Below are positions 1-17,867 of a stretch of 64,000 nucleotides of DNA, piece by piece (position 1 is the first letter of the stretch; every line of letters starts with the position of its first letter). The stretch lies in contig NZ_JAGMTU010000001.1 of assembly GCF_023703415.1 (NCBI RefSeq), forward strand, positions 1 through 64,000, written 5' to 3'. Below the pieces are notes generated by a model. It was not told the DNA's origin. It did not search any database and saw only the letters and a program-made list of their open reading frames with translations. This stretch comes from Microbacterium sp. USTB-Y (lineage in GTDB: Bacteria > Actinomycetota > Actinomycetes > Actinomycetales > Microbacteriaceae). A program made the translations under genes and the position numbers.

Positions 1-129
1 CCCCGAAGGACCCAGCATCGAGAAGAACTCCCCCTCCGCGATCTCCAGATCCACACCATCCACAGCAGTCACAGACCCGAACGCACGCGTGAGTCCGGTC
101 AATCTGATCGCAGGCCGTCTGTCACTCAT
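1..129 (-). CDS. ABC transporter ATP-binding protein, PotA-like (partial, N-terminus only)
   Basis: Only the first 43 residues lie in the window; the gene continues past base 1. The visible part has the usual start of an ABC ATPase: a first beta strand with RAFGSVTAVDGVDLEI, then the sequence leading into the Walker A loop, ending at LGPSG. This layout is typical of PotA/UgpC-type ATPases of spermidine/putrescine or related importers. The ATG at 129 is preferred because a GAGGGAG ribosome-binding site sits 6 bases upstream; the in-frame ATG at 135 directly abuts that site and is unlikely. It follows the aminotransferase by 35 bases and is probably the first gene of an ABC importer transcribed with the catabolic operon. 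Substrate is inferred, not shown. Confidence 0.75.
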   Translation of the reverse strand, partial: MSDRRPAIRLTGLTRAFGSVTAVDGVDLEIAEGEFFSMLGPSG

Positions 130-164
130 GAGCATCTCCCTCGATGTCTCGCTCACGGAGTCCG

Positions 165-1553
165 TCAGGACCCGGGTCCGTCGAGGCTGCGGATCCCGTC
201 GATGATCACCTGGATGCCGTCCCGGAAGAGGTCGGGCTCGATGACGATGGGCGGCAGCAGCCGGATGACGTTCTCGTGCACTCCGTTGGTGAGCGCGAGC
301 ACGCCGTGGGCGTGGCAGTAGCGCGTGACGGCCTTGGCCCGCTCGGACGAGGGAACCAGAGTGTCCTCGTCGCCGAACTCGATGCCGATCATGGCGCCGC
401 GGGTGCGCACGTCGATCACGCCGTTGCCCGCGCCCACGAGGGGACGCAGCATCTCGAGCGCGATCTCGCCGAGCGCGGTCGCCCGCTCCAGGACGCCGTC
501 CGAGTCGATCTGCTCGAAGACGGCGAGCGCCGCCTCGCACGAGAGCGGGTTGCCGATGTACGTCCCGCCGAGCCCGGCGGAGTGGATGGCGTTCATGACC
601 TCGGCGCGCCCGGTCACGGAGCTCAACGGCATGCCGTTGGCCAGCGCCTTCGCGGCGACGAGCAGATCGGGCACGACGCCCTCGTGCTCGATCGCCCAGA
701 TCCGCCCGGTGCGCCCCATCCCGCTCTGCACCTCGTCCGCGATCAGCAGGATGCCGAACTCGTCGGCGATCTCGCGCAGCCCGGCGAGGAAACCGGGCAG
801 CGGGATCAGGCACCCCGCCTCGCCGAGGATCGGTTCGATGATGATCGCGGCGAAGGCGGCGGCATCGTTCTCGACCAGAGCGGCGCGCACCTGCTCCAGG
901 AACGAGTCCACGGAGCCGGCATCGTCACGCGGCGATGTCGGCACGGGCGCGTGCACCACGTCCTCCGAGAACGGGCCGAATCCGGTCTTGTACGGGTGCG
1001 ACTTCGACGTCAGCGACATCGTCATGTGGGTGCGCCCGTGATACGCACCGGTGAACGCGAGCACCTTGCGCCGGCCGGTCACGTAGCGCGCGATCTTCAC
1101 GGCGTTCTCGTTGGCCTCGGCGCCGGTCGTGAACAGTGCGGAGCGCTTCTCGTGATCGCCGGGGGTGTGCTCGTTGAGCCATCGGCAGACCTCGACGTAA
1201 CTCTCGTACTCGGTGGTCATGAAGCACGTGTGCGTGAAACGGTCCAGCTGCGTCCGTATGCGCTCGCGCACCCGCGCGTTCGAGGCGCCGAGAGCCGTCG
1301 GCCCCAGCCCCGACGCGAGGTCGACGATCCGATTGCCGTCGAGATCGAGGAGGATCCCCCCGTCGGCGCGCTCGATGAACACCGGCAGCTGCGCCCCGAT
1401 CCCGTTCGAGACCTGAGCCCGGCGCTCCTCCATCAGCGCGCGCGAACGCGGGCCGGGGATCTCTGTGGCGAGGTGCCGCGTCTGCGGAACGCGCTGAAGC
1501 GCCGTGGATCCGGCCGGCGTGTATCCGGCGTGAATGGTGTCCGTCGTGGTCAT
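165..1553 (-). CDS. Class III PLP-dependent aminotransferase (GABA/omega-amine type)
   Basis: The 462-residue protein belongs to the class III (GabT/acetylornithine) aminotransferases, which move a terminal amino group from an amine or omega-amino acid to a 2-oxo acid in the cytosol. Visible landmarks are the FTTGAEANENAVKIAR cofactor-phosphate region near residue 145, the IADEVQSGMGRTG segment with the PLP-binding Asp at about 273, and the Schiff-base lysine in AKALANG at about 302. Length fits the family. The start overlaps the biotin carboxylase stop by 4 bases (ATGA), so the two are translationally coupled. The operon context (biotin carboxylase, carrier, carboxyltransferase, diaminopentanoate-dehydrogenase-like enzyme) suggests amine or amino-acid catabolism; the true substrate cannot be read from sequence. 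Confidence 0.88.
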   Translation of the reverse strand: MTTTDTIHAGYTPAGSTALQRVPQTRHLATEIPGPRSRALMEERRAQVSNGIGAQLPVFIERADGGILLDLDGNRIVDLASGLGPTALGASNARVRERIRTQLDRFTHTCFMTTEYESYVEVCRWLNEHTPGDHEKRSALFTTGAEANENAVKIARYVTGRRKVLAFTGAYHGRTHMTMSLTSKSHPYKTGFGPFSEDVVHAPVPTSPRDDAGSVDSFLEQVRAALVENDAAAFAAIIIEPILGEAGCLIPLPGFLAGLREIADEFGILLIADEVQSGMGRTGRIWAIEHEGVVPDLLVAAKALANGMPLSSVTGRAEVMNAIHSAGLGGTYIGNPLSCEAALAVFEQIDSDGVLERATALGEIALEMLRPLVGAGNGVIDVRTRGAMIGIEFGDEDTLVPSSERAKAVTRYCHAHGVLALTNGVHENVIRLLPPIVIEPDLFRDGIQVIIDGIRSLDGPGS

Positions 1554-2911
1554 GCCCGTCGCTCCTCCATGAACTCGGCGATGTAGCCGGTGTTGAACGC
1601 ACCGCTGCGGAACCTCGGGCTGTCCAGGACCTCCTCGTGGAATCGGGCGGTCGTGACGACCCCCTCGATCCGCATCTCCTGCAGGGCGCGCAGGGCCCTG
1701 GCGATCGCCTCGTCCCGATCCCGGCCCCAGCAGATGAGCTTGCCGACCATCGAGTCGTAGAACGGCGGGATGGTGGCACCGCTCTCCAGATGCGTGTCCA
1801 GCCGGACGCCGAAGCCGCCCGGGGCGCGGAACTCGCGGATGGTCCCGGGGCGAGGGGCGAAGCCGTTGTCCGCGTCCTCGGCGTTCACACGGCACTCGAT
1901 CGCGTGTCCTCGGATCTGCACATCGTCCTGAGCGATCTCCAGGGGCTGTCCCCCGGCGATGAGGAGCTGCAGCTTGATCAGGTCGATCCCGGTGATCATC
2001 TCCGTGACGGGGTGCTCGACCTGGATCCGGGTGTTCATCTCGATGAAGTAGTACTCGCCGGTGCCGTTGTCGTAGACGAACTCCACGGTGCCGGCGTTGA
2101 CGTAGCCGACCTCGCGGCACAGTGCGACGGCCGCCTGAGCGAGTCCTTGGCGGGTGGCGTCGTCGAGCACCGGCGACGGAGCCTCCTCGACGAGCTTCTG
2201 ATTGCGGCGCTGCGCGGTGCAGTCGCGTTCGCCGAGGTGCAGCGTGGTCGTGCCGTCCGAGATCACCTGGATCTCGATGTGCCGGATGTCGGTGAGGTAG
2301 CGCTCGATGTAGACCGACGGATCCCCGAAGGCGACCTCCGCCTCCGCCATGATCTCGGCGAGATCGCTCGCGAGGGTGTCCGCGGTCTGGACGACGCGGA
2401 GCCCGCGTCCGCCGCCGCCGGCCGCCGCCTTGATCAGCAGCGGGAAGCCGACCTGCTCGGCGACCGCGAAGGCCTCGTCCGGGTCGGCGATGGCGCCGTC
2501 GGAGCCGGGGACGGTCGGGACGCCGGCGCGGCGGGCGATCTTCTTGGCCTCGATCTTGTCGCCCATCCGGCGGATGACCTCCGCCGAGGGACCGACGAAG
2601 CCGACGCCCTCGGCCTCGCAGAGCGCGACGAAGTCGGAGTTCTCGGAGAGGAATCCGTAGCCGGGATGGATCGCGTCCGCACCGGTGAGCTGCGCGGCGG
2701 CGATGATCGCGGACGGATCGCGATAGCTGAGCTTCACGGACGCGGGTCCGATGCAGATCGCCTGGTCGGCGAGCCGGACGGGCAGCGAGTCGCGATCCGC
2801 CTCGGAATGCGCGAGGATGCTGCGGATCCCGAGCTCCTTGCAGGCGCGGATCACGCGCAGCGCGATCTCTCCGCGGTTCGCGATCAGGACGCTCGAAAGC
2901 TTCTGTGTCAT
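1550..2911 (-). CDS. Biotin carboxylase subunit (AccC type) of a multi-subunit carboxylase
   Basis: A 453-residue free-standing biotin carboxylase, which uses ATP and bicarbonate to carboxylate biotin on a carrier protein. It begins with VLIANRGEIALRVIRACKEL, has the glycine-rich ATP loop AAAGGGGRGLRVV near residue 165, and the active-site block FIEMNTRIQVEHPVTEMITGIDLI near residue 290. Length equals E. coli AccC. It has no carrier domain of its own; the carrier is the next gene upstream. GGAG lies 8 bases before the ATG. Because the partner carboxyltransferase is of the HMGL/pyruvate-carboxylase type rather than the AccAD crotonase type, this subunit is probably not the fatty-acid enzyme; a separate AccA3-type protein is encoded at 25104-26873. 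Confidence 0.9.
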   Translation of the reverse strand: MTQKLSSVLIANRGEIALRVIRACKELGIRSILAHSEADRDSLPVRLADQAICIGPASVKLSYRDPSAIIAAAQLTGADAIHPGYGFLSENSDFVALCEAEGVGFVGPSAEVIRRMGDKIEAKKIARRAGVPTVPGSDGAIADPDEAFAVAEQVGFPLLIKAAAGGGGRGLRVVQTADTLASDLAEIMAEAEVAFGDPSVYIERYLTDIRHIEIQVISDGTTTLHLGERDCTAQRRNQKLVEEAPSPVLDDATRQGLAQAAVALCREVGYVNAGTVEFVYDNGTGEYYFIEMNTRIQVEHPVTEMITGIDLIKLQLLIAGGQPLEIAQDDVQIRGHAIECRVNAEDADNGFAPRPGTIREFRAPGGFGVRLDTHLESGATIPPFYDSMVGKLICWGRDRDEAIARALRALQEMRIEGVVTTARFHEEVLDSPRFRSGAFNTGYIAEFMEERRA

Positions 2912-2981
2912 GGGGTCACTCCCTCGTGCGGTTCGGGCCCGGGCGGCCTCGACGGGCCGCCCGGGTGCGGTCGGAGCCTGT

Positions 2982-3539
2982 TCAGGCGCTCTTGCGGATC
3001 ACGATCAGCGGCTGCCCGTACTCGACGAGCGACTCGTTCTCCACGAGCACGCGGACGACCGTTCCGGCGACGCCGGCCTCGATGTTGTTCATGAGCTTCA
3101 TCACCTCGACGATGCCCAGCACCGTGTCGGGCTGGACGGCGTCCCCCGCCGTGACGAACGCCGGCGCCCCGGGCTGCGGCGCGGCGTAGAACATGCCGAG
3201 CATGGGCGCGGTGACGACCACCTCGTCGGCCGCGAGCGCCGCCGGTTCGGCTGCTGCGGGCGTCGCGGCCGCCGGCTCAGCGGCCGGCGCGGGTGCTGCC
3301 GCAGCAGCCACGGCGGGCGCCACCGGGACGGGAGCAGCGGTCGCAGCGGGTGCTGCCGGCGCCGCGGGAGCAGCGACCGGGGCGGGTGCTGCCGGTGCGA
3401 GGACGCTCGCGCCGTTGTTGCGCGAGACGTGCAGCTCCACATCGCCGAACGTGAGCGACAGTTCGCGGACGTCCTCCGCGACGTTCACCCAGTCGAGGAT
3501 CGCCTTGAGCTCTTTCAGGTCGGGCGAGTTATCGGCCAT
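2982..3539 (-). CDS. Biotin carboxyl carrier protein (BCCP)
   Basis: This 185-residue protein has an AccB-like N-terminus (residues 1-40), a long Ala/Pro-rich flexible linker (about 45-110), and a C-terminal biotinyl domain with the biotin-attachment lysine in VEVMKLMNNI. The motif has VMK where most carriers have AMK, which is common in bacterial AccB. It shuttles carboxyl groups between the biotin carboxylase encoded downstream and the carboxyltransferase encoded upstream, with which its start overlaps by 11 bases. GGAG lies 10 bases before the ATG. The low-complexity linker is encoded by repetitive gccg/gcgg triplets, a place where length may vary between strains. BirA at 16931-17698 would attach the biotin. 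Confidence 0.92.
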   Translation of the reverse strand: MADNSPDLKELKAILDWVNVAEDVRELSLTFGDVELHVSRNNGASVLAPAAPAPVAAPAAPAAPAATAAPVPVAPAVAAAAAPAPAAEPAAATPAAAEPAALAADEVVVTAPMLGMFYAAPQPGAPAFVTAGDAVQPDTVLGIVEVMKLMNNIEAGVAGTVVRVLVENESLVEYGQPLIVIRKSA

Positions 3540-5070
3540 CTTCGTTGTCTCCTTTGTCCAGGGCGATCCGCAGATCGCCGCTCTTGAGCACCTGGCGTCC
3601 CGTCGAGGTGCTGTCGTACAGCGCGGTGATGAGGTCGAGCGTCGGCATCCGCTTCTCCGACGGCGCGCCGCCGGACGCGACCACGCGTTTCATGTCGTCC
3701 ACCTGCGTTCCGGCGAACTGCGCGCGCAGCAGCCAGGTGTCGATGTCCTCGTCCGGGTAGCGCTCCTGCAGCGACGGCATCATCGGCGGGATCGGCGCCG
3801 GCTCCTCCGCGATGTTGGATGCGCCGTTCGCCAGGATCTTCTCGAGCGCCTCCGGATCGAGGGGCGCGAGCGGCTTGCCGTAGTAGCCGAGGGCGTACTT
3901 CTTCACCTCGTTCGGCACGACCTTGTAGCGTTCCCCGCTCATCACGTTCATCACGGCCTGCGTGCCCACGTGCTGGGCGAACGGCGTGATCATGATCGGG
4001 TAGGCCAGCTCGGCCCGCACCCGCGCGACCTCGAGCATCAGCTCGTCGAAACGGTCGGCGAGACCCGCCGCCTCGAGCTGCGACTGGAAGTTCGAGAGCA
4101 TTCCGCCCGGAGTCTGATGCATGTAGTGCATGCCGGTGTACTCGGCCGGCGCGCCGATCGGCTTGCCCTCTTCCTCGGCGATCCGGGTCAGCGTCCTGCT
4201 GATCCCAGCGATGCGCTCGTCATCGACGTTCACGGTGTAGCCGAGCGCGCGCAGATCGCGCACGGTGCCCTGGGTGGAGGGCTGCGCGTTGCCGGTCGCG
4301 AGCGGGTAGATCGAGGTGTGCAGCGAGTCCGCACCCAGTTCGACCGCCTCGAGGCAGACGAGGGGCGCGAGGCCGGTGAGGCTGTGGGTGTGCACCTCGA
4401 GGGGGCGGTCCCCGATCACCGCCTTCAGCGCGGGGACGAGCGTGCGGATCCGGTCCGGCGTCAGCAGCCCTCCCGCGTCCTTGAGCATGATGCGATCGAC
4501 ATCGGCCTTCTCGATCAGCTCCTGCGCCTTGGCGACGAACAGCTCGTCCGTGTGCACGGGCGACTCGCAGAACGACACCGCACCGAAGGTCTCGGCGCCG
4601 AGGCTCTTGGCGCGCAGGAGGGAGGCCGCGATGTTGTCGACGTCGTTGAGCCCGTCGAACGCGCCGATCTCGCGGAAGCCGTTCGCGACGAGGCGGTCGA
4701 CCCAGGCGGCGATCACGTCGTCCGGGAGGAAGTCGAAAGTGGCGAGGTTCTTCGACCGGATCAGTGCGCGGAACGTCGTGTTCGGCGCGTGCTTGTGCAT
4801 GAGCCGGACGCGCTCCCAGGGATCCTCCTTGAGGTAGCGGACCGAGACGTCGAACTGGATCGGTGCGACCAGATCCACGTGCTCGAAGCCCGCCGCGTCG
4901 AACTCCTCGATCATCTCGAGCATGTGCGCGGTGCGCATGCGCGTCGCCCACAGGCTCTGGTGGCCATCGCGCAGCGTGGTGTCGATGATCTTCACCTCGC
5001 GCCTGCTCCCCGGGGGCCTTCCGCCCCTGCTCATCAGCTCGGCGATGTTGACCGGTGTACTCTGGGTCAT
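3529..5070 (-). CDS. HMGL-type carboxyltransferase (pyruvate carboxylase B / oxaloacetate decarboxylase alpha-like)
   Basis: The 513-residue protein has an HMGL-like TIM barrel followed by a conserved carboxylase (PYC/OADA) domain. Metal-site features are visible: DTTLRDGHQS at 30-39, the carbamylated-lysine candidate in IMLKDAGG (Lys197), and the HTH pair at 227-229. Three stretches that are strongly conserved in pyruvate carboxylases differ: GGATFDV reads VAPIQFDV (68-75), HTHDTSG reads HTHSLTG, and SGMTSQPS reads ATGNAQPS (258-265). That comparison is from memory of the family. There is no attached biotinyl domain. The differences suggest a carboxyl donor or acceptor other than pyruvate. 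The ATG at 5070 was chosen over an upstream start because GGAGAGGAG precedes it by 7 bases. Confidence 0.85.
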   Translation of the reverse strand: MTQSTPVNIAELMSRGGRPPGSRREVKIIDTTLRDGHQSLWATRMRTAHMLEMIEEFDAAGFEHVDLVAPIQFDVSVRYLKEDPWERVRLMHKHAPNTTFRALIRSKNLATFDFLPDDVIAAWVDRLVANGFREIGAFDGLNDVDNIAASLLRAKSLGAETFGAVSFCESPVHTDELFVAKAQELIEKADVDRIMLKDAGGLLTPDRIRTLVPALKAVIGDRPLEVHTHSLTGLAPLVCLEAVELGADSLHTSIYPLATGNAQPSTQGTVRDLRALGYTVNVDDERIAGISRTLTRIAEEEGKPIGAPAEYTGMHYMHQTPGGMLSNFQSQLEAAGLADRFDELMLEVARVRAELAYPIMITPFAQHVGTQAVMNVMSGERYKVVPNEVKKYALGYYGKPLAPLDPEALEKILANGASNIAEEPAPIPPMMPSLQERYPDEDIDTWLLRAQFAGTQVDDMKRVVASGGAPSEKRMPTLDLITALYDSTSTGRQVLKSGDLRIALDKGDNEDGR

Positions 5071-5101
5071 CCGCTCGCTCCTCTCCACTCGTGCTGTTCG
5101 G

Positions 5102-6163
5102 TCATCGCGCCGCGGCGGGCGCGGGAATGCTGTGGTCCGCGGCGTTCGCACGGGCCGCGAACCTCCTCACCGGGATGTCCGCCATGGTCAGCAGGCCGGG
5201 CGCGGCGCCGGGGACTCGGGGGATCGCATTGGCGGCGACCGCCACGGTCGAGGCGTAGCTGTCGATCTGTCCGGCGGTGAACTCGAGCGTCTGCCCGGCG
5301 CTCTCGATGCGCCACGCACCGCCCTCCGGGAACGGATCCCCGTCGCGGAAGATCCCGAAGTCGATGACCGCCTCGATCACGGTCTCGCCGTCGATCACGC
5401 CGCGAGCGGCGTGCCGGATCACGGCGACCGTGCCCGCCTCCAGGGTCACGTGCGTCGCCTCGCGCGCGCTCTCGGCGAGGAGCACGGGCGCGGGGTCGTC
5501 GACGACGATCTCGTCCAGCTCCCAGCCGAGCCCGTCGGCGAGCGCCGCAACCGACTCGCGGAAGCCGACGTGTCCGATCACGTGACCTGCGTCGCGTTCC
5601 GCGGCGAACTGCTCGGCGGTGAGGCCGAACCCGAACTTGGAGAGGATGCCGCCGTATCCGGACATCTCGGCCGTGCGTCGCATCGCCACCCGGGCCACGT
5701 CCAGGGTGAGGCTGCTCAGCAGCAGTGGGAGCGTGTCCAGGAGGATGCCGGGGTTGCAGCCGGTTCCGAGGACCGTGAGACCGGCGTCCCGCGCACGCTC
5801 GTCGATCCGGCGGGCGACGGGCTCGTGGTCGAAGAACCCGAACCCGAGCTCCTCGCAGATGCTGACGACGTTCATCCCGCGATCCAGGAGGGCGTTGATG
5901 AGGGGCTCGACCTGATCGATGAACGAGGTGGTCGCCACGAACGCGATGTCCGCATCCGCGGCATCCGCGATCGCCGCCGTGATGCGCGCCTCCGGGACGG
6001 CACCGGGGATGATCGCGTCGAGACGCGTGCCCGCGAGGCCCGGCGCCGGATCGATCGCCCCGACGACCTCGCAGCGGGATCCCGCTGCGAGGCGGACGCC
6101 CACGGCGCGGCCGACCGCGCCCAGACCGACGAGCAGGACCTTCGGGGTGTCTTCGGCGTACAC
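5102..6163 (-). CDS. NAD(P)-binding dehydrogenase, 2,4-diaminopentanoate dehydrogenase-like
   Basis: The 353-residue protein starts with a Rossmann fold (VLLVGLGAVGRAVG, residues about 9-22) of the dihydrodipicolinate reductase/homoserine dehydrogenase type. It continues with a central motif TVLGTGCNPGILLDTLPLLL that resembles Ord, the 2,4-diaminopentanoate dehydrogenase of clostridial ornithine fermentation, which oxidatively deaminates an amino group. It is the first gene of the operon: GTG start at 6163 with AAGGAG 5 bases upstream, and 31 bases between its stop and the carboxyltransferase start. The other Ord-pathway genes (aminomutase, OrtAB thiolase) are absent here, so the substrate is probably different. 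Family assignment is moderately sure; the reaction is inferred. Confidence 0.75.
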   Translation of the reverse strand: MYAEDTPKVLLVGLGAVGRAVGVRLAAGSRCEVVGAIDPAPGLAGTRLDAIIPGAVPEARITAAIADAADADIAFVATTSFIDQVEPLINALLDRGMNVVSICEELGFGFFDHEPVARRIDERARDAGLTVLGTGCNPGILLDTLPLLLSSLTLDVARVAMRRTAEMSGYGGILSKFGFGLTAEQFAAERDAGHVIGHVGFRESVAALADGLGWELDEIVVDDPAPVLLAESAREATHVTLEAGTVAVIRHAARGVIDGETVIEAVIDFGIFRDGDPFPEGGAWRIESAGQTLEFTAGQIDSYASTVAVAANAIPRVPGAAPGLLTMADIPVRRFAARANAADHSIPAPAAAR

Positions 6164-6450
6164 GGATGCTCCTTCGCAGAGGGTTCGGGAAGACGGCGCG
6201 GAGCAGCGCTGTCAGGCCGCTTCGGGGCGTTCGGGACTGGGCCGGCCTCAGGTCGGCCGACGAGGATCCGCACTCAGCAGTGAGTCGAATCTTTCTTGAC
6301 TAAATGCTACGAGAGTTGTCAGAAAATTCTTCAGAAGCAGCAATATCACGTGGATTCTTTGTGTCTTGCTCCCGGTGTCGAAGATTCTTCGCTTCGGGCA
6401 CCGCACCGGACGCGCACGCCGAATTATCTTCGGCGATCAGTGCAGACGAC
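6164..6450 (-). promoter_or_regulatory. AT-rich regulatory region of the biotin-carboxylase/aminotransferase operon
   Basis: This stretch between the permease terminator and the first gene of the operon is clearly richer in A and T than its surroundings (about 6285-6395). It holds two 11-bp dyads that differ at one base, GAAAATTCTTC at 6322-6332 and GAAGATTCTTC at 6380-6390, 58 bp apart, plus a shorter CTTCAGAAG dyad at 6329-6337. These look like a pair of operator sites. No convincing -35/-10 pair could be chosen by eye, so the start of transcription is not placed. No gene is seen between 6164 and 6492. Confidence 0.45.
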
Positions 6451-6492
6451 GCTGCTCGCCCACCATCACGGGCGGCTCCGGCCCGCAACGCA

Positions 6493-6534
6493 GCGAGCGC
6501 CGGGGCATCCCTGTTCGGATGCCCCGGCGCTCGC
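6493..6534 (-). terminator. Terminator hairpin after the APC permease
   Basis: A perfect 18-bp inverted repeat (6493-6510 with 6517-6534, loop of 6) starts 13 bases after the permease stop codon. It lacks a long T run but is strong and GC-rich, as is usual in this group. Confidence 0.75.
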
Positions 6535-6547
6535 CGTTCGGCCGTAC

Positions 6548-7978
6548 TCAGCCGATGCCGCTGAGCGAGTCGGTCTCGGTGTTGCCGATCCGGCTCAGGA
6601 CCTCGGGACGGGTCCTGCGGACGTGGATGAACCAGCCGATGCCGACGAGCATCGTCGCCGCGAAGAGGTACGGAAGCAGGTTCAGCGGGAACGCCGGCAC
6701 CGGCCAGACGTTGGCGAAGAAGATGTAGGTCATGGCCAGCACGGAGATCGTCGCGCACACCGTGACGAGCGTGCGCGGCATCCCCATCTTCCGCACGTAC
6801 ACCGCACAGGCGAAGGCCACGAGCGCATAGGCGACCATGTAGCCGTACACGCCGTAGGTGTCGAGCCACACCACGATCTCCATCGGGTGCCCTCCCGCGA
6901 GGAGCAGGATGATGTTGACGACGACCGAGAGGGCTCCGCCGAAGATCAGCACCCGGTGCGGGGTGAGATGCTTCCTGTGCGTGCGGCCCAGGCTCTCGTG
7001 CACCACGCCCTCCTTCCCCATCACGTAGACGATCCGTCCGAGCACGTTCAGCGCGGCGATGCACACTGCGGAGAACGAGGCCGCGACGCCGAACAGCAGG
7101 AACATCGTGTACCAGCCGGGCATCCCGATCTTGTCGGCGATGTCCTGCAGCGGGTTCGCCGACGTCGCGAGCTTGTCTCCGAGGACGGCGATCTGCGTGT
7201 ATGCGCCGAAGAGGTAGATCAGGCCGATTCCGACGACGCTCCACATGATCACGCGGGGAATGGTCTTGTACGGGTTCTTGGCCTCACGCCCGAGCGCGTC
7301 GGCCGACGAGAATCCCGCGAAGCCGAGGACGCCCAGCACCATACCCGCGGCGACCCCCTGCGGCGGTGCGCCGTCGAACGTGAACTGGTTCGGATCCCAT
7401 GCAGCAGGGCCGCTCACGACGAGCGACGTGATGAACAGCGTCAGGATGATGAGGACCGACGCGATCTCGAGCACGAACGAGACGCGTGCGGAGATCTGGA
7501 TCCCCTGGATGGTGAAGAAGGTCGTGACGACGCCGAGCACCACGGTCAGCACGATGAAGCCGATCACCCCGGCGGTCGGGATGCCGAACGCGTGCAACAG
7601 GTCGGAGGCGTAGGACACCCCGCCGCTGAGCGAACCCGCGGTGACGCCCCAGCAGCCGATGATCAGCGCCAGCCCGGCGATGTACGCGGCCGTCGGTCCG
7701 AGGGACTTCGACACATAGGTGTAGATCGAGCCGGCCGACGCGTTCTTGCGCGCGAAGACCGCGACGCACCAGCCGACGCTGAGGATCACGATCGTCGCGA
7801 GCAGGAGCGACAGCAGGGTGCCGTTGCCCGCGCTGACGAAGATCGCGGCGGCCGTGAAGGCGAGGACCGCGCTCGGGGCGATGTTGGCGATGGCCTGGGC
7901 GCCGAGTTCGGCTCCCCCCATCACGCCGCGACGCAGCCCGGCGTCGACGTGCGTGGATTGCTTCTCTGTCAGGGTCAT
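6548..7978 (-). CDS. APC-family amino acid/amine permease
   Basis: A 476-residue integral membrane protein of the amino acid-polyamine-organocation superfamily, with about 12 hydrophobic segments. The first membrane segment carries the unwound-helix signature seen in this family (AQAIANIAPSAVLAFTAAAIF, broken here around residues 28-48), and NASAGSIYTYVSKSLGP follows near residue 80. It would import an amino acid or amine by proton symport. GGAG lies 8 bases before the ATG. It follows the alcohol dehydrogenase gene by 61 bases in the same direction and is closed by a strong terminator, so the two probably form one transcript separate from the carboxylase operon. Its substrate is likely the compound degraded by the neighbouring enzymes. 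Confidence 0.88.
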   Translation of the reverse strand: MTLTEKQSTHVDAGLRRGVMGGAELGAQAIANIAPSAVLAFTAAAIFVSAGNGTLLSLLLATIVILSVGWCVAVFARKNASAGSIYTYVSKSLGPTAAYIAGLALIIGCWGVTAGSLSGGVSYASDLLHAFGIPTAGVIGFIVLTVVLGVVTTFFTIQGIQISARVSFVLEIASVLIILTLFITSLVVSGPAAWDPNQFTFDGAPPQGVAAGMVLGVLGFAGFSSADALGREAKNPYKTIPRVIMWSVVGIGLIYLFGAYTQIAVLGDKLATSANPLQDIADKIGMPGWYTMFLLFGVAASFSAVCIAALNVLGRIVYVMGKEGVVHESLGRTHRKHLTPHRVLIFGGALSVVVNIILLLAGGHPMEIVVWLDTYGVYGYMVAYALVAFACAVYVRKMGMPRTLVTVCATISVLAMTYIFFANVWPVPAFPLNLLPYLFAATMLVGIGWFIHVRRTRPEVLSRIGNTETDSLSGIG

Positions 7979-8039
7979 CGTGCGCTCTCCTTCGAGCAGA
8001 TCGGGTGTGTCGGGTACACGCTGATCGCGTCGGGTGCGA

Positions 8040-9152
8040 TCAGGGGATGAGCAGCGTGCGCAGCACGCCGCCCGCTTCGAGGTCGTCCAGGGCTTCGGCG
8101 GCCTCGCTCAGGGGCCGGCGGCCCGAGATGAGCGGGTCGAGCTTGAGCTGGCCGTCCATGTAGCGGTCGACCAGCGCGGGGATGTCGATGGACGGGCGCA
8201 CCGAGCCGTAGTTCGAGCCGAGGATGCGCTGGTCGGCCTCGGCGAGCGCCAGCGGCTCGAACGACGCCGTGGCACCCGTGGGGGGCAACCCCACGATCAC
8301 GGCGGCCCCGCCAAGACCGAGCATGCGGATCGCCTGCTCGGTCGTGAAGGTGCGCCCGATCGCGTCGAAGGCGTAGTCGACGCCGTCCGGGATCAGCGCG
8401 AACAGCTGCTCGACGGAGTCGCCCTTCGAGGCGTCGATGCGGTCGGTCGCACCGAACTGCAGGGCCATCGCGGTCTTCTCCGGCACGACGTCGATCGCGA
8501 TGATGCGCTCGGCACCGGCGAGCTTCGCGCCCTGCACCACGTTCAGGCCGACCCCGCCGCAGCCGATCACGGCGACGGTGGATCCGGGCTCCACAGCGGC
8601 GGTGTTGGTCACGGCGCCGACTCCCGTGGCGACCGCGCAGCCCACCACGGAGATCACGTCGAGCGGCGCATCGTCGCGCACCTTGATCGCGCCGGAGGCG
8701 GGCACGACGACCTCTTCGGCGAACGAGGAGACGCCGAGGTAGTGGTGCAGCGTCTCCCTCTCGCCGTGCTCGTCGGTCCGGCTCATCCGCGACGTGCCGT
8801 CGAAGAGCACGCCGTTCGGGGCGACCAGGGTCGCGACCTTCTGGCAGCGCGCCTCGTGCCCCTGCAGGCAGTAGCGGCACTCGCCGCACGGCGGCACCCA
8901 GCTGAGCACGACGTGGTCGCCGACGGCGAGCGAGGTCACGCCCTCGCCCAGCTCCACGACCGTGCCGGAGCCTTCGTGGCCCATCACCATCGGCACCGCG
9001 GCGTCCCAGTCGCCCTGACGCACGTGCAGGTCGGAATGGCACACGCCGGCGGCGGCGATCTTGACGCGCACCTCTCCCGCCTTGGGGGCCGCGAGCTCCA
9101 CATCGGTGAGCACGACCGGGGTCTGCGTGTCACGGAACACGACTGCCTTCAT
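8040..9152 (-). CDS. Zinc-dependent alcohol dehydrogenase (class III-like MDR family)
   Basis: The 370-residue protein is a medium-chain zinc dehydrogenase that interconverts alcohols and aldehydes with NAD(P). Catalytic zinc ligands are visible in GVCHSDLH and GHEGSG near residues 38-65 and in VVGCAVATGVG near 170; the structural zinc lobe has the cysteine cluster PCGECRYC plus a fourth Cys; the nucleotide loop is GCGGVGLNVVQGAKLAG. The third catalytic ligand being Cys and the overall layout resemble class III/mycothiol-dependent enzymes. GGAG lies 8 bases before the ATG. It starts next to, and divergent from, the PucR regulator gene, so it is likely under its control. Together with the aldehyde dehydrogenase at 10865 it would process an alcohol/aldehyde intermediate. 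Confidence 0.85.
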   Translation of the reverse strand: MKAVVFRDTQTPVVLTDVELAAPKAGEVRVKIAAAGVCHSDLHVRQGDWDAAVPMVMGHEGSGTVVELGEGVTSLAVGDHVVLSWVPPCGECRYCLQGHEARCQKVATLVAPNGVLFDGTSRMSRTDEHGERETLHHYLGVSSFAEEVVVPASGAIKVRDDAPLDVISVVGCAVATGVGAVTNTAAVEPGSTVAVIGCGGVGLNVVQGAKLAGAERIIAIDVVPEKTAMALQFGATDRIDASKGDSVEQLFALIPDGVDYAFDAIGRTFTTEQAIRMLGLGGAAVIVGLPPTGATASFEPLALAEADQRILGSNYGSVRPSIDIPALVDRYMDGQLKLDPLISGRRPLSEAAEALDDLEAGGVLRTLLIP

Positions 9153-9236
9153 GGCTTCTTCTCCTTTGAATGCCGCACACGAGAGCCGCGCGCATCAGAA
9201 CTACGGCGATGCTAGAGAGCCGCGTGCCGCTCTGTC

Positions 9237-9286
9237 ACTGTGCCAATCGTCGATATCTCGATTCGCTCACGGACACTTGGTACAGT
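9237..9286. promoter_or_regulatory. Candidate operator between pucR-type regulator and alcohol dehydrogenase
   Basis: Half-sites ACTGTGCCAA (9237-9246) and TTGGTACAGT (9277-9286) form an inverted repeat with one mismatch and a 30-base spacer, so the centres are 40 bp apart (about four helical turns). The right half-site ends 7 bases before the regulator's start codon. The divergent placement suggests autoregulation together with control of the alcohol dehydrogenase-permease transcript. Confidence 0.5.
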
Positions 9287-9292
9287 CACGTC

Positions 9293-10771
9293 ATGGCGCT
9301 CGACATCCAGACCGTCGCTCGTGCGGTGCGCGGGACCCTCATCGTCGGGCAGTTGCCGGGGCACATTCCGATCGACGGCCTGGCCCGACTGAGCGAGTAC
9401 GTGGTCGTCGCGAATCGGAACTTCGCGACGCTGCTGACCGGCGGGACGGACGAGCTGCACGATCGCCTCGCCCCCGGCTCGCCGACATCGGAGACCACCG
9501 TGCGCGGTGTGTTCGTCACCGACGACGACAGTGCACGGCTGCGCGCCGCGCTCACGGAGAACCGCATGACGGCGATCCTGGGCGCGCAGCTCCCCGGCGA
9601 GCCCGAGACCGCTGCGGGGACGGTGCCTCCCGCCGCGCTTCACGCCCAGCTGTCCGCGATCCTCTCCGAGGACCAGGCCGCTTCCGACCGGCTGGTGACG
9701 GCCGGCACCAAGGTGCTCACCCAGGTCGCCCGACGCGGTGGCGCCCCCGCGGTGATCGCCGAGCTCGCGCATCGCATCGACGGATGGGCGGTCCTCCTCG
9801 ACGCGCACGGCCAGATGATCACGAGCGCAGGAGCGGGCCGTCTGCACATCGACGATGCGACGGCGGTCGCCCTCGGCCGCCCGGTGCGCGTGCGGCATCC
9901 GGGGCTGCAGGTGCACCAGGTCGGATCCGACCGGGATCTCACCGGCTACCTCGTCATCGCCTCCCGTTCCAGCGTGACCAGCCGCAATCGCGATCTCGCA
10001 TCGCAGTCGGCGGCGCTCTTCGACCTGGTGCTGCGCACGCGCGACCCTTCGCTGACGGAGCGGCTGGGGCGCGAGGCGCTGATGGGAGTGCTGCTCGCGG
10101 GCGGGAGCGAGGCCGGGCGACTGCTGCGCCGGTGGGGCGTGCACGAGGCGGGCCTCACCGCCTTCCACCTGGGGACCCGGACCCGCACGATCGATCTCGA
10201 GCGTCTCACCGTGCGCTGGCTCGACGAACTGGGCGCCGAGCACATCTTCGTCGGCGGCGGCGGCCGGGTTCGCGGGTTCGTCCCGGATGCCCTGGCGGAC
10301 GAGCTCGCGGCCCGCGTCCAGGCGTTCACCCCGCTCGGAAGCGGCCGCGCGCACCTGGGGCTCGGGCTCCCCGCGTCGGTCGAGCTCCTCCGGCGCAGCG
10401 CGCTGCAGGCGAAGCAGGCCCTCGACACGGCGATCGAGGACGGACAGACGGTCCTGCGCTATTCGGAGCTGCCCACGGTCGAGCTCGTGCTGGACGCGAT
10501 GGGCGACGAGTCCTCGGCACAGCTGGCGGCCGTGCTCGACGGGCTCCGCGAACCTGACGGCGACCATGGAGTCCTGACCGACACGCTGCGCGTCTTCCTC
10601 GCAGAGCACGGCGCGCAACGCGCCACCGCGTCACGGCTCGGCATCCATCGCCAGACGCTGACCTCGCGCGTGCGGAGGATCGAGGAGCTGACCGGGCTGT
10701 CCCTGGACCGCGCCGACGACCGCGCGGCAGCCTGGCTCGCGCTGCGCGCACTCGGGCTCTCCACGCCGTGA
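9293..10771 (+). CDS. PucR-family transcriptional regulator
   Basis: The 492-residue protein has an N-terminal PucR-type sensor domain (about 1-130), a GAF/GGDEF-like middle region and a C-terminal HTH_30 DNA-binding domain at about 425-490 (FLAEHGAQRATASRLGIHRQ followed by a recognition helix and RRIEELTG). PucR proteins commonly control catabolic genes next to them in response to a metabolite. The ATG at 9293 is chosen because the conserved domain begins there; an upstream in-frame ATG at 9170 would run through the divergent promoter. No clear ribosome-binding site is present. It is divergent from the alcohol dehydrogenase and convergent with the aldehyde dehydrogenase, and is the best candidate regulator for the left-hand catabolic locus. 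Confidence 0.88.
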   Translation: MALDIQTVARAVRGTLIVGQLPGHIPIDGLARLSEYVVVANRNFATLLTGGTDELHDRLAPGSPTSETTVRGVFVTDDDSARLRAALTENRMTAILGAQLPGEPETAAGTVPPAALHAQLSAILSEDQAASDRLVTAGTKVLTQVARRGGAPAVIAELAHRIDGWAVLLDAHGQMITSAGAGRLHIDDATAVALGRPVRVRHPGLQVHQVGSDRDLTGYLVIASRSSVTSRNRDLASQSAALFDLVLRTRDPSLTERLGREALMGVLLAGGSEAGRLLRRWGVHEAGLTAFHLGTRTRTIDLERLTVRWLDELGAEHIFVGGGGRVRGFVPDALADELAARVQAFTPLGSGRAHLGLGLPASVELLRRSALQAKQALDTAIEDGQTVLRYSELPTVELVLDAMGDESSAQLAAVLDGLREPDGDHGVLTDTLRVFLAEHGAQRATASRLGIHRQTLTSRVRRIEELTGLSLDRADDRAAAWLALRALGLSTP

Positions 10772-10813
10772 ACCGGGGACCGGCGGACCCCAGCGGGCCC
10801 CGATGCGTGCGGG

Positions 10814-10837
10814 GCGCACCAGGGCCCGCCGGTGCGC
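10814..10837. terminator. Small hairpin between convergent genes
   Basis: GCGCACC (10814-10820) pairs with GGTGCGC (10831-10837) around a 10-base loop between the ends of the PucR regulator and aldehyde dehydrogenase genes. It may serve both transcripts; no T tract is present. Confidence 0.35.
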
Positions 10838-10864
10838 GAGCGGCCGTGGAGCCGGGAGGGACGG

Positions 10865-12241
10865 CTACTCGGCGACGAAGTAGAGCCGCTTGTTCGCGAA
10901 CTCGCCGATGCCGACCGGCCCCATCTCTCGTCCGAAACCGGAGCGCTTGACCCCGCCGAACGGGATGTCGGCCCCCTCCGCCGCGATGATGTTGACGTGG
11001 GCCATGCCGACCTCGAGTTTCGAGGCCACGCGGGCGGCACGGGCCTCGTCGGTCGAGAACACCGAGCCGCCCAGGCCGAGCGCACAGTCGTTCGCGAGGT
11101 CCAGTGCCTCCTCGTCGCTGTGCACCCGGTACACGGTGGCCACCGGCCCGAAGACCTCCTCGCGGTAGGAGTCGGAGTCACGCGGCACATCGACGAGCAC
11201 CGCGGGCGAGTAGTACGCGCCGGGACCATCCGACAGCACGCCGCCGGCGAGCAGGCGGGCACCCTCGGAAATCGCCTTCTTCACCTGGGCGTCCACCGTC
11301 TCTGCTGCGGCCCGGGTGGACAGCGGCGTGTACTCCCCCGCCCCCAGGTCCAGCTGGTCACCGGGCTTCAGGCCTTCGGCGAGCGAGATCAGCTCGGCGA
11401 CGAACTCGTCGTAGATGTCGTCCATGACGATGAGCCGCTTGTTCGAGTTGCAGACCTGACCACCGTTGTAGATGCGGTTCTCCCACGCCGTCCGGGCGAT
11501 CCCCGGCACATCGTCGGAATCGAGCACGACCATCGGGTCGATGCCGCCGAGCTCGAGCACGCACTTCTTCAGGTTCGCGCCCGCCTGGGCGCCGATGATC
11601 GCCCCCGCTCCTTCGGAACCGGTCAGGGAAACGCCCTGCACACGGGGATCCGCGATGATCGTCGCGATCTGCTCGTGCGAGGCGAACAGCGCCTGATACC
11701 CCCCGATCGGCACTCCCGCGGCCTCCATGATCTCCTGGATCAGCAGGTTGGACCGGGTGCAGATGTCCGCGTGCTTGAGCAGGATGGTATTGCCGAGTAC
11801 CAGGTTCGGCGCTGCGAAGCGGGCCACCTGGTAGTAGGGGAAGTTCCACGGCATGACGCCGAGCAGCGCGCCGATCGGCAGATGCTCGATGACGGCCTTG
11901 CCGGGAACCGAGCTCGGGATCTCGTAATCGGTGATGAGCCCGGGCCCGTGCACCCCGTAGTAGTCGATGATCGATGCGGCGAAGTCGACCTCCTCGAGCG
12001 CCAGGTCCGTCGACTTGCCCATCTCGAGCGAGATCGCACGCGCCAGCTCCTCCCGCCGCTCGGTGAAGATCTCCGCGATGCGCCGCACGATCCCCGCGCG
12101 GTCCTGGACGCTGCGATCACGCCATTCTCGATAGGCCGCGTCGGCAGCGGCGAGCTGCTGCTCGATCTGCCCATCGCTCGCCGACTCGAACGACTCGATG
12201 ATCTCGCCCGTCGCGGGGTTCTGAACTCGGTACTTCGCCAT
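10865..12241 (-). CDS. NAD(P)-dependent aldehyde dehydrogenase (succinate-semialdehyde dehydrogenase type)
   Basis: The 458-residue protein is an aldehyde dehydrogenase oxidising an aldehyde to the acid. The catalytic glutamate lies in LELGGIDP (most relatives have GGSDP) and the nucleophilic cysteine in GGQVCNSNK. Length and opening match the short succinate-semialdehyde dehydrogenases (GabD2-like). The ATG at 12241 is chosen over a further upstream start because GGAG precedes it by 8 bases and the family begins at this point. It is a single-gene transcript, preceded by a 34-bp dyad. With the class III aminotransferase it would complete an amine to aldehyde to acid sequence. Specificity is inferred from length and context. 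Confidence 0.87.
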   Translation of the reverse strand: MAKYRVQNPATGEIIESFESASDGQIEQQLAAADAAYREWRDRSVQDRAGIVRRIAEIFTERREELARAISLEMGKSTDLALEEVDFAASIIDYYGVHGPGLITDYEIPSSVPGKAVIEHLPIGALLGVMPWNFPYYQVARFAAPNLVLGNTILLKHADICTRSNLLIQEIMEAAGVPIGGYQALFASHEQIATIIADPRVQGVSLTGSEGAGAIIGAQAGANLKKCVLELGGIDPMVVLDSDDVPGIARTAWENRIYNGGQVCNSNKRLIVMDDIYDEFVAELISLAEGLKPGDQLDLGAGEYTPLSTRAAAETVDAQVKKAISEGARLLAGGVLSDGPGAYYSPAVLVDVPRDSDSYREEVFGPVATVYRVHSDEEALDLANDCALGLGGSVFSTDEARAARVASKLEVGMAHVNIIAAEGADIPFGGVKRSGFGREMGPVGIGEFANKRLYFVAE

Positions 12242-12336
12242 GGTTCTGCTCCTGTCTTCCTCGGGTCCGCTCTCGGGCCGGCTCGGGGCCCGGCGCAGAC
12301 TCCGCGCCGAGGGACGCACGATCGTCGACATCGACT

Positions 12337-12370
12337 CTTCGCTATGCGGAATCTGCTTCGCATCACGAAG
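12337..12370 (-). promoter_or_regulatory. Nested 34-bp dyad upstream of the aldehyde dehydrogenase
   Basis: Outer arms CTTCG/CGAAG and inner arms ATGCG/CGCAT share one centre, with 2-base gaps between inner and outer arms. The element lies about 96 bases upstream of the aldehyde dehydrogenase start and looks like an operator for a dimeric regulator. Confidence 0.5.
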
Positions 12371-16930: not shown

Positions 16931-17698
16931 TCAGGCGAGGCGCAGGTGCACGATGTCACCCGCGGCGATGCGGTGCTCCGTTCCGTCCGCGGACACGATC
17001 AGGCAGCCGTCCGCGCCGAGCCCGGTCGCCTCGCCGATCAGTTCGGCGCCCCCGGGAAGCATCACCCGGACGGTGCGGCCGAGCGTGTCGCAGCGCGCGG
17101 CGACGGCGTCGCGCAGACCGCTCGCGACGGCGGAGCCGTGCTCCGAGAGCGCTTCGATCCATCCGTCCAGCCGCGCCAGATAGCCGGCGACGAGCAGATC
17201 GACGTCGACGTCCGCTCCCTCGACCGCGAACGAGGTGGCGGTCTCCACGGGGAGCTGCTCGGCCGTCATCGCCGTGTTCACGCCGGAACCGACGATCACG
17301 ACGTCGGCCCCGGTGGCCTCCGCGAGGATGCCGCAGATCTTGCGATCGCCCACCAGGACGTCGTTCGGCCACTTCACGCCCACGCTCCGTTCGGGCAGCT
17401 GCGCGGCGATCGCATCGGCCATGGCGAGACCCGCCGCGAGCGGGATCCAGCCGCGCTCCGCGAGGGGGACCCGCGGCACCCGCAGCAGCACCGACAGCGC
17501 CAGCGCGGATCCCGCCGGTGCCGTCCAGACCCGGTCGAGCCGCCCGCGCCCGGCGACCTGGTCCTCGGTGAGGATCGCCGACAGGTGCGGCCACCCCTCC
17601 GCGTCGCCCGCGTGCGCACGCAGGTCGGCGTTCGTGGACCCGGTGGACGCGACGACGTCGAGCCGCGCCGCGGCGGCCGTGCTGTGCGGGAAGCTCAT
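16931..17698 (-). CDS. birA: Biotin--[acetyl-CoA-carboxylase] ligase
   Basis: The 255-residue ligase activates biotin with ATP and attaches it to carrier lysines. Motifs are [13 protein letters not shown] near residue 17, the biotinyl-AMP loop [10 protein letters not shown] near 50, and [20 protein letters not shown] near 107. It lacks the N-terminal DNA-binding domain of E. coli BirA, so it is a group I ligase without repressor function. It is leaderless: a TAGGGT box lies 6 bases before the ATG. It should serve both carrier proteins encoded in this window, the BCCP at 2982-3539 and the AccA3-type subunit at 25104-26873. Confidence 0.95.
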
Positions 17699-17704
17699 GC
17701 GGTC

Positions 17705-17710
17705 ACCCTA
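17705..17710 (-). promoter_or_regulatory. -10 box of leaderless birA
   Basis: TAGGGT on the minus strand, 6 bases before the birA ATG. Confidence 0.6.
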
Positions 17711-17719
17711 CCGAGCGCT

Positions 17720-17785
17720 CGATACTCGAGTCGTCTCCCTGAGCACGGCCTATCGGTCGTGCTCAGGGAGACGACTCGAGTATCG
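17720..17785. repeat. 28-bp perfect inverted repeat between birA and accD
   Basis: Arms 17720-17747 and 17758-17785 are exact reverse complements with a 10-base loop. Each arm contains ACTCGAGT. The element lies upstream of the start boxes of both divergent leaderless genes, so it should not be part of either mRNA. Confidence 0.9.
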
Positions 17786-17854
17786 GAGGGTCCGTACAGA
17801 GGATCCCGCCCCGGAGTTGTGCCTCTCATCCAACGGGCGCCGAGGCCCCGGCGC

Positions 17855-17860: not shown

Positions 17861-17867
17861 GGGAACC

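What the first reader, a model, noticed from the sequence alone, without database searches (positions are those of the whole stretch)
1..12370. Apparent novel amine/amino-acid degradation locus built around a free-standing biotin-dependent carboxyltransferase
One operon (6163 down to base 1) joins a 2,4-diaminopentanoate-dehydrogenase-like enzyme, an HMGL-type carboxyltransferase, separate BCCP and biotin carboxylase, a class III aminotransferase and a PotA-like ABC ATPase. Next to it are an APC permease, a zinc alcohol dehydrogenase, an aldehyde dehydrogenase and a PucR regulator. Each family is recognisable, but I know of no described pathway combining them. A working idea is that an imported amine is deaminated while the carboxyltransferase adds, removes or transfers a carboxyl group on a carbon skeleton. 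The start, order and products are inference.
Basis: partly seen in the sequence, partly recalled or inferred. Interest (0 to 1): 0.75.

Follow-up and report, generated by a model that had tools for sequence, protein, structure and literature searches.

The report
Amine-fed biotin ketone carboxylase cluster
This bacterial gene cluster, which likely continues past the window onto a second contig, is predicted to turn an imported amine into a ketone, add CO2 to the ketone with a biotin enzyme and then split the product into acetyl-CoA and a second CoA thioester, which would be a route of amine breakdown that our literature searches did not find described.

Summary
Base 1 is a contig end. The operon very likely continues on contig C4 of the same genome with the rest of a putrescine/spermidine-like ABC importer, 3-oxoacid CoA-transferase A and B, a 3-oxoadipyl-CoA-thiolase-like enzyme and a PcaR-family regulator. 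In Leucobacter edaphi the order AmDH-CT-BCCP-BC-aminotransferase-CoA-transferase A/B-thiolase is contiguous. The carboxylase is not ordinary pyruvate carboxylase: the genome has a separate full-length one, and this CT sits in an 87-row clade split from seven OadA/PC-type rows with 100/100 support. That clade holds CTs beside dikinase, phosphatase, CoA-transferase or thiolase genes, a setting like that of the published biotin-dependent ketone carboxylase HpeCBA. The 'Ord-like' protein belongs to the native amine dehydrogenases, which interconvert amines and ketones. I propose: amine to methyl ketone, to 3-oxo acid, to 3-oxoacyl-CoA, to acetyl-CoA plus acyl-CoA. My best substrate guess is 4-aminopentanoate via levulinate and 3-oxoadipate, held at about one in three. 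The carboxylation chemistry has a precedent; the amine-fed, kinase-free combination was not found in nine answered literature searches. No activity has been tested.

The parts
   Evidence: nearest solved structures 7xdu and 6g1h/6g1m; Glu104, Arg162, Arg163 and His198 invariant in the 17 aligned rows
3529..5070 (-). HMGL-type carboxyltransferase (CT), 513 aa, without a fused biotin domain
2982..3539 (-). biotin carboxyl carrier protein, 185 aa, biotin Lys148 in EVMKLMN
   Evidence: PF00364, 62 bits
1550..2911 (-). biotin carboxylase, 453 aa
   Evidence: accC TIGR00514 643 against 626.5
165..1553 (-). class III aminotransferase, GABA-transaminase-like (below the equivalog cut-offs), 462 aa
1..129 (-). 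N-terminal 43 codons of a PotA-like ABC ATPase, cut by the contig end
   Evidence: a TOBE_2 C-terminal piece lies at the end of contig C4
6548..7978 (-). APC-family amino acid/amine permease
   Evidence: also upstream of AmDH in L010 and L011
8040..9152 (-). zinc alcohol dehydrogenase
   Evidence: also in L010 and L011
9290..10771 (+). PucR-type regulator
   Evidence: also in L011
10865..12241 (-). aldehyde dehydrogenase, closest to succinic-semialdehyde dehydrogenase models (below cut-off)
   Evidence: also in L010
16931..17698 (-). biotin-protein ligase (BirA-like); not part of the operon but a likely source of biotinylated BCCP
   Evidence: PF03099, 53.6 bits

Best explanation
The operon is predicted to encode an amine breakdown route in which an imported amine would be oxidised to a methyl ketone, the ketone would be carboxylated by a biotin-dependent enzyme, and the resulting 3-oxo acid would likely be activated with CoA and cleaved to acetyl-CoA plus a second acyl-CoA. 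Steps: (1) uptake through the PotABCD/YdcS-like ABC importer and the APC permease (families shown, substrate inferred). (2) The amine dehydrogenase removes ammonia from R-CH(NH2)-CH3 to give R-CO-CH3 (family shown, reaction inferred); the aminotransferase, ADH, ALDH and flavin amine oxidase would trim other ends of the molecule (inferred). (3) BC charges BCCP with CO2 and CT transfers it to the methyl carbon, the same chemistry as pyruvate to oxaloacetate but on another ketone (inferred from clade, pocket changes and neighbours). (4) The CoA-transferase makes R-CO-CH2-CO-CoA (inferred). (5) The thiolase gives R-CO-CoA and acetyl-CoA (inferred). Leading substrate guess: 4-aminopentanoate to levulinate to 3-oxoadipate to succinyl-CoA and acetyl-CoA, because the thiolase is 3-oxoadipyl-CoA-thiolase-like and the linked regulator is of the PcaR family.
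For: Operon anatomy. Continuation on C4: CoA-transferase A (75% identity to L011) and thiolase (80%) lie 3.4-6.0 kb from the C4 end on the minus strand; the C4 end carries the last 95 codons of an ABC ATPase (TOBE_2, 45.8 against 21 bits), then YdcS/PotD-like, PotB-like and PotC-like genes, CoA-T A, CoA-T B, thiolase and an IclR-type gene, in the direction in which the window operon runs off C1. Same core contiguous in L011. Amine dehydrogenase: nearest solved structures 7xdu (E 4e-52) and 6g1h/6g1m (2e-43); [quoted passage not shown] it is the only PF19328 match of the genome. Ketone carboxylase: the own pyruvate carboxylase is a separate gene (1458 bits against a cut-off of 965; 29% identity to this CT); 87-row clade apart from seven OadA/PC-type rows at 100/100; zinc-site counterparts and Arg34, Gln38, Arg105 kept, while GGAT to APIQ (69-72), G to S (106) and Y to F (112) changed in 35-38 of the 38 near rows filled there. 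Neighbours: CoA-T A and B on the CT strand within 7 kb in 23 of 86 loci; in L041 and L042 a thiolase over the PcaF cut-off (680 and 658 against 597) and CoA-transferase genes (PF01144) near CT; dikinase, AMP-binding, thiolase and phosphatase genes beside related CTs; BioY biotin transporters in L014, L101 and L102. Precedent: HpeCBA carboxylates phospho-acetovanillone with ATP and HCO3- (PMC9618137). Own thiolase: best family 3-oxoadipyl-CoA thiolase 434 bits, best other specific model 348; regulator over the PcaR/PcaU cut-off, 331 against 285.
Against: No substrate has been tested. The C1-C4 join is inferred: no terminal overlap of 12 or more bases, and some 200-240 ATPase codons would be missing between the pieces, judging by PotA-type model lengths of 353-378. 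Own thiolase is below the PcaF cut-off (423 of 597), and in L010 the nearest thiolase is AtoB-like (402 bits against 269 for PcaF) with an AMP-binding ligase and no CoA-transferase found. Importer parts, aminotransferase, ADH and ALDH all score below the NCBIfam equivalog cut-offs. 61 of 86 loci show no CoA-T A/B pair in the DNA held (two of these have another CoA-transferase), and three Rhizobiales loci (L019, L020, L024) show neither CoA-T nor thiolase. Arg105, counterpart of a pyruvate-binding Arg (recalled), is kept, so pyruvate is not excluded by that residue. The six distant relatives used as context (L104-L107, L111, L112) differ at the active site: the Lys197 counterpart is Lys in 2, Glu in 3, Tyr in 1; Arg105 is Thr in 2; His229 is Asn in 1, so they are distant guides. 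HpeB, XccC and AcvE themselves were not in the tree. CoA-transferase A's nearest solved structures are succinyl-CoA:3-ketoacid (acetoacetate) types. The roles of aminotransferase, ADH, ALDH and amine oxidase have no direct support.
Confidence: 0.7

Rival explanations
1. The ketone is acetone or butanone made from isopropylamine or sec-butylamine; carboxylation gives acetoacetate or 3-oxopentanoate, then acetyl-CoA units. Same mechanism, simpler substrate.
For: Native amine dehydrogenases act on short methyl ketones (PMC11164908, passages). CoA-transferase A resembles succinyl-CoA:3-ketoacid (acetoacetate) enzymes of solved structure. L010 has an AtoB-like thiolase.
Against: The thiolase of the window genome and those of L011, L014, L018 and L048 are closest, among specific models, to 3-oxoadipyl-CoA thiolase and the linked regulator is PcaR-type. 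A GABA-transaminase-like enzyme, a semialdehyde-type ALDH and a putrescine-like importer are not needed for isopropylamine.
Confidence: 0.2
2. The amine dehydrogenase acts on 2,4-diaminopentanoate as in ornithine fermentation, and the carboxylase extends 2-amino-4-oxopentanoate before CoA activation and cleavage.
For: The only NCBIfam match is 2,4-diaminopentanoate dehydrogenase and AmDH4 is among the nearest solved relatives; Arg162/163 and His198 are kept.
Against: The equivalog score is 221 of 400 bits, while a match in Acetoanaerobium noterae scores 537. The fermentation pathway cleaves 2-amino-4-oxopentanoate directly with its own thiolase and needs no carboxylation (recalled). No ornithine aminomutase was noticed in the parts of the locus read; it was not searched for genome-wide.
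Confidence: 0.12
3. CT/BCCP/BC is a multi-subunit pyruvate carboxylase or oxaloacetate decarboxylase, an anaplerotic helper whose neighbours have an unrelated job.
For: Databases name its relatives pyruvate carboxylase subunit B or oxaloacetate decarboxylase alpha; it passes the NCBIfam domain model PRK09282 (415 against 402); Arg34, Gln38 and Arg105 are kept.
Against: Separate full-length pyruvate carboxylase in the genome; clade split 100/100 from OadA/PC-type rows; pocket positions invariant in the seven outgroup rows have changed; recurrent company of CoA-transferase and thiolase. No OadB or OadG gene was noticed among the neighbours scanned; this was not a dedicated search.
Confidence: 0.1

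Closest known systems
HpeCBA of the hydroxyphenylethanone (acetovanillone) pathway, Rhodococcus rhodochrous GD02, and the acv genes of Sphingobium SYK-6 (PMC9618137: abstract, passages and Discussion read; PMC13101465: passages read)
   Same: Three separate proteins (BCCP, CT, BC); for HpeCBA, ATP-dependent biotin carboxylation of a methyl ketone to a beta-keto acid, then CoA chemistry that cleaves it.
   Different: Works on phosphorylated aromatic ketones made by a dikinase and is followed by a phosphatase and a CoA ligase/hydrolase. No dikinase or phosphatase gene was noticed in the window operon; its ketone would come from an amine dehydrogenase, and it would use a CoA-transferase and thiolase.
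XccBCA, implicated in 4-hydroxyacetophenone breakdown in Aromatoleum aromaticum EbN1 (as told in PMC8461187, passages, and PMC9618137; original paper not read)
   Same: Three-component biotin-dependent carboxylase of a ketone.
   Different: Anaerobic, aromatic substrate, clustered with kinase genes.
Acetone carboxylase and acetophenone carboxylase (listing and abstract starts; otherwise recalled)
   Same: Carboxylate ketones at ATP cost to 3-oxo acids.
   Different: Biotin-independent, unrelated protein family.
2,4-diaminopentanoate dehydrogenase and the native amine dehydrogenases (PMC11164908, passages and section 7 read)
   Same: PF19328 domain, Glu, Arg and His kept, Asp at the aligned NAD-selecting position; amine/ketone interconversion.
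   Different: Below the equivalog cut-off; sits with a carboxylase, CoA-transferase and thiolase and not in an ornithine-fermentation cluster.
Levulinate (lva) pathway of Pseudomonas (PMC6692424, listing and abstract start only)
   Same: Would degrade levulinate, if the substrate guess is right.
   Different: lva begins by CoA ligation of levulinate; here carboxylation would come first and give 3-oxoadipate.

Membership tests
biotin-dependent ketone carboxylase (Hpe/Acv/Xcc kind) | separate BCCP, BC and HMGL-type CT encoded together | tested here: met
biotin-dependent ketone carboxylase (Hpe/Acv/Xcc kind) | CT groups with HpeB, XccC and AcvE rather than with pyruvate carboxylase and oxaloacetate decarboxylase | tested here: inconclusive
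   split from seven OadA/PC-type rows at 100/100, but HpeB, XccC and AcvE could not be fetched; only relatives chosen by gene context stand in for them
biotin-dependent ketone carboxylase (Hpe/Acv/Xcc kind) | ketone dikinase and phosphatase genes alongside (Hpe/Acv pathway) | tested here: not met
   none noticed among the operon and neighbouring genes scanned; not searched genome-wide; so not filed as a member of the Hpe pathway
biotin-dependent ketone carboxylase (Hpe/Acv/Xcc kind) | ATP- and HCO3-dependent carboxylation of a ketone | not testable with these tools
   needs an assay
2,4-diaminopentanoate dehydrogenase (NF040740) | equivalog score of 400 bits | tested here: not met
   221 bits
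native amine dehydrogenases (PF19328) | DAP_DH_C domain over cut-off | tested here: met
   112 against 23.3 bits
native amine dehydrogenases (PF19328) | catalytic Glu and substrate-pocket Arg/His kept | tested here: met
   Glu104, Arg162, Arg163, His198 invariant in 17 rows and aligned with AmDH4; which residue is P3, P9 or P15 of the paper is my inference
pyruvate carboxylase / oxaloacetate decarboxylase alpha | falls with PC/OadA in a tree and keeps their invariant pocket residues | tested here: not met
3-oxoadipyl-CoA thiolase PcaF (TIGR02430) | equivalog cut-off 597 bits | tested here: not met
   423 bits, though among specific models it is the best kind
PcaR/PcaU/PobR regulators (TIGR02431) | subfamily cut-off 284.75 bits | tested here: met
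   331 bits

The most novel reading that the evidence does not exclude
A biotin-dependent levulinate carboxylase: the operon takes a 4-aminopentanoate-type gamma-amine to levulinate and carboxylates its methyl group to 3-oxoadipate, a one-step entry of an aliphatic keto acid into the beta-ketoadipate pathway. The same CT/BCCP/BC enzyme beside PcaF and CoA-transferase genes in Vreelandella and beside CoA-transferase and thiolase genes in several actinobacterial genera would be a widespread, unrecognised keto-acid carboxylase, and a native amine dehydrogenase would gain a physiological pathway outside ornithine fermentation.
Probability: 0.33. Interest if true: 0.78.

Novelty: new variant of a known kind. 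Interest (0 to 1): 0.62.

Why it matters
Biotin-dependent carboxylation of ketones is shown with purified enzyme, in the papers seen, only for phosphorylated aromatic ketones. A large clade of proteins filed in databases as 'pyruvate carboxylase subunit B' may instead be ketone carboxylases tied to CoA-transferase and thiolase genes; that would correct many annotations, expose CO2-fixing enzymes on new ketone substrates, and give a native amine dehydrogenase a place in a catabolic pathway. For one group of that family (G1) a published context analysis found no clear evidence of function (PMC11164908); I did not assign the window protein to a group.

Tried and rejected
Ordinary pyruvate carboxylase or oxaloacetate decarboxylase: rejected on the separate gene, tree and pocket. 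2,4-Diaminopentanoate dehydrogenase by equivalog: not met. Hpe pathway membership: no dikinase or phosphatase noticed. Transcarboxylation (5S): weaker model score (291 against 415 bits), and a BC gene is present. Plasmid search for the amine dehydrogenase: no match. Looking for HpeB or XccC by name: the 120 rows listed of 2782 gave no such name; two more CT loci of Rhodococcus pyridinivorans P23 were read and have no kinase gene annotated beside them. Rarity searches: CT at E<=1e-60 in 0 of 34 same-genus genomes and, at 35-36% identity, in 2 of 23 other genomes of the order; AmDH in 0 of 395 other genomes of the order (E<=1e-50); CT in 0 of 395 (E<=1e-150) and in 1 of 393 other genomes of the class (45-46% identity, E<=1e-100). 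In some searches at most 3 to 5 candidates per genome were scored in the rows shown, so misses are possible; the collection does hold CTs in several Micrococcales genera. No structure prediction was run. The region C7:130000-146000 (L100) was fetched and not read.
Full report
OBSERVATION. On the minus strand, downstream of a Zn-ADH (9152-8040) and an APC permease (7978-6548), run: amine-dehydrogenase-like protein 6163-5102, CT 5070-3529, BCCP 3539-2982, BC 2911-1550, aminotransferase 1553-165 and the first 43 codons of an ABC ATPase (129-1). BCCP carries the motif EVMKLMN (Lys148). ALDH (12241-10865) lies on the same strand and PucR (9290-10771) on the other.

THE OPERON GOES ON. The window begins at base 1 of contig C1 of a 4.11-Mb, 20-contig genome. 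In L011 (Leucobacter edaphi) the genes after the aminotransferase are CoA-transferase A, CoA-transferase B and a thiolase. Searching the own genome with the L011 proteins found CoA-transferase A (75% identity) and thiolase (80%) on contig C4, 3.4-6.0 kb from its end (C4 is 467,220 bases). The C4 end reads, on the minus strand: the last 95 codons of an ABC ATPase (TOBE_2 domain), a YdcS/PotD-like binding protein, PotB-like and PotC-like permeases, CoA-transferase A, CoA-transferase B, thiolase and an IclR-type gene; the importer parts are below the equivalog cut-offs. The truncated ATPase pieces, their order and their direction fit one operon broken by the assembly; the ends do not overlap by 12 or more bases, so the join is inferred. 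Divergent from it lie an Lrp-type regulator and a flavin amine oxidase whose nearest solved relatives are a monoamine oxidase and putrescine oxidase; L010 has such an amine oxidase too.

CO-OCCURRENCE. Amine dehydrogenase, CT, BCCP, BC, aminotransferase, APC permease and ADH occur together in 2 of 80 (L010, L011). In the protein database, 8 of the 120 listed CT rows share the exact longest-contig length with one of the 120 listed amine dehydrogenase rows (P0001/P0126, P0007/P0133, P0008/P0136, P0009/P0143, P0011/P0135, P0012/P0145, P0021/P0123, P0072/P0148); P0012 is L011 itself. Shared contigs are inferred from these lengths and, for four pairs, equal organism names. On a tree of 67 CTs (48 of the 120 listed rows, 18 loci, the window) the paired rows fall in three places: a 15-row clade with the window, L010 and L011; P0021 in its sister group; and P0072 beside L023. 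The set is rare: AmDH in 0 of 395 other genomes sampled from the order, CT in 0 of 395 at E<=1e-150, with few candidates scored per genome.

NOT PYRUVATE CARBOXYLASE. The genome has a separate gene in an 1157-aa frame that passes both pyruvate carboxylase equivalog models (1458 against 965 and 1204 against 1114 bits over the 1006 aa held). In a maximum-likelihood tree of 94 CT domains, 87 rows including the window are split from seven rows (own pyruvate carboxylase, three plasmid-borne rows annotated oxaloacetate decarboxylase alpha, and L085, L087, L088) with 100/100 support and a branch of 1.19; window, L010 and L011 form a 100/100 clade. The own pyruvate carboxylase is a long branch (3.2). 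Zinc-site counterparts Asp35, Lys197, His227 and His229 and Arg34, Gln38 and Arg105 are kept in the near rows filled there (38 or 39 of 39), while positions invariant in the outgroup have changed: GGAT to APIQ (69-72; 35-38 of 38), Gly to Ser106 (38 of 38), Tyr to Phe112 (38 of 38). That these line the pyruvate and zinc sites is recalled from pyruvate carboxylase structures, not computed here. Six more distant relatives used as context (L104-L107, L111, L112) keep Arg34, Asp35, Gln38 and His227, but Lys197 is Lys in 2, Glu in 3 and Tyr in 1, Arg105 is Thr in 2, and His229 is Asn in 1.

NEIGHBOURS. Of 86 non-outgroup loci (77, 9 plasmid loci), 25 hold CoA-transferase A and B, 23 of them on the CT strand within 7 kb (8 of the 23 are Corynebacterium), and 25 a thiolase over 36% identity. 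61 of 86 show no A/B pair in the DNA held, some of it cut by contig ends. In L041 and L042 (Vreelandella), which are among the 61, thiolases over the PcaF cut-off (680 and 658 against 597) and CoA-transferase genes (PF01144; their PcaI/PcaJ label is by eye) lie near CT: in L042 on the same strand, the thiolase ending 129 bases upstream, and in L041 divergent. Only three outgroup loci had full flanks and none of them showed CoA-transferase; that control is weak. The own genome has CoA-transferase A relatives at three places in 4.1 Mb. Plasmid loci read with their annotation show CT beside 3-oxoacid CoA-transferase, thiolase and BioY (Cnuibacter), beside pyruvate-phosphate-dikinase, AMP-binding, thiolase and phosphatase genes (Rhodococcus), and beside a HAD hydrolase-like gene and acetoacetate-CoA ligase (Pseudomonas putida YC-AE1).

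PRECEDENT. PMC9618137 (abstract, passages and Discussion read) shows that HpeCBA, with separate BCCP, CT and BC, carboxylates phospho-acetovanillone and phospho-4-hydroxyacetophenone with ATP and bicarbonate, and relates it to XccBCA and the acv genes. PMC13101465 (passages) reports that among clusters of hpe homologues kinase and carboxylase genes occurred together in only 52 of 836 cases. PMC11164908 (passages and section 7; [quoted passage not shown] for its group G1 substrate and context are unknown. The window protein has Asp38, Glu104, Arg162/163 and His198. I did not assign it to a group of that paper.

SUBSTRATE. The own thiolase is closest, among specific models, to 3-oxoadipyl-CoA thiolase (434 bits; next 348) but below the cut-off; the linked IclR-type gene passes the PcaR/PcaU model (331 against 285); CoA-transferase subunits pass TIGR02429 and TIGR02428. 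Carboxylating the methyl group of levulinate gives 3-oxoadipate, which would explain thiolase and regulator. Against: in L010 the thiolase is AtoB-like, and CoA-transferase A's nearest solved structures are succinyl-CoA:3-ketoacid (acetoacetate) types. I hold levulinate at about 0.33.

LITERATURE. Nine answered searches, judged by their listings, showed no paper describing an amine dehydrogenase with a biotin-dependent ketone carboxylase or carboxylation of levulinate; most papers of subscription journals are not held.

VERDICT. New variant of a known kind: the carboxylase chemistry has a precedent, but amine-fed, kinase-free, CoA-transferase/thiolase-coupled use on a likely aliphatic ketone was not found in what was searched. 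Every enzymatic step is inferred.

Noticed in passing
window 16931-17698 (-): BirA-like biotin-protein ligase gene about 11 kb from the operon, next to frames that look by eye like acyl-CoA carboxylase genes (17235-19457 + and 25053-26873 +).
   Followed up: partly
L041 and L042 (Vreelandella): The same CT/BCCP/BC module sits near thiolases over the PcaF cut-off, CoA-transferase genes and TRAP-like transporter genes; in L041 frames further along look by eye like pca dioxygenase genes.
   Followed up: partly
L025 and L027-L039 (Corynebacterium): 14 Corynebacterium loci carry the module beside an MFS transporter gene on the other strand; 8 of 14 have CoA-transferase, thiolase and PcaR-like genes within 10 kb, 6 do not.
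   Followed up: no
L014, L019, L020, L041, L102: A cupin gene like the one annotated 2,4'-dihydroxyacetophenone dioxygenase family in L102 lies near the CT in five loci; BVMO-like flavin monooxygenase genes lie near it in L023, L026, L040 and L101.
   Followed up: no
L103 (Caballeronia sp. NK8 plasmid pNK84): The module lies with genes annotated acetoacetate decarboxylase and carbonic anhydrase; the first of these had no Pfam match at E 1e-5.
   Followed up: partly
L104 and L122 (Rhodococcus pyridinivorans P23 plasmid pA): Three different CT genes related to this one on one plasmid, each with other neighbours.
   Followed up: partly
L019 and L020 (Rhizobium): The module is next to sugar-kinase, transketolase-half, SDR and glycerol-dehydrogenase-like genes (by eye), with no CoA-transferase or thiolase found; its ketone may be a quite different one.
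   Followed up: no
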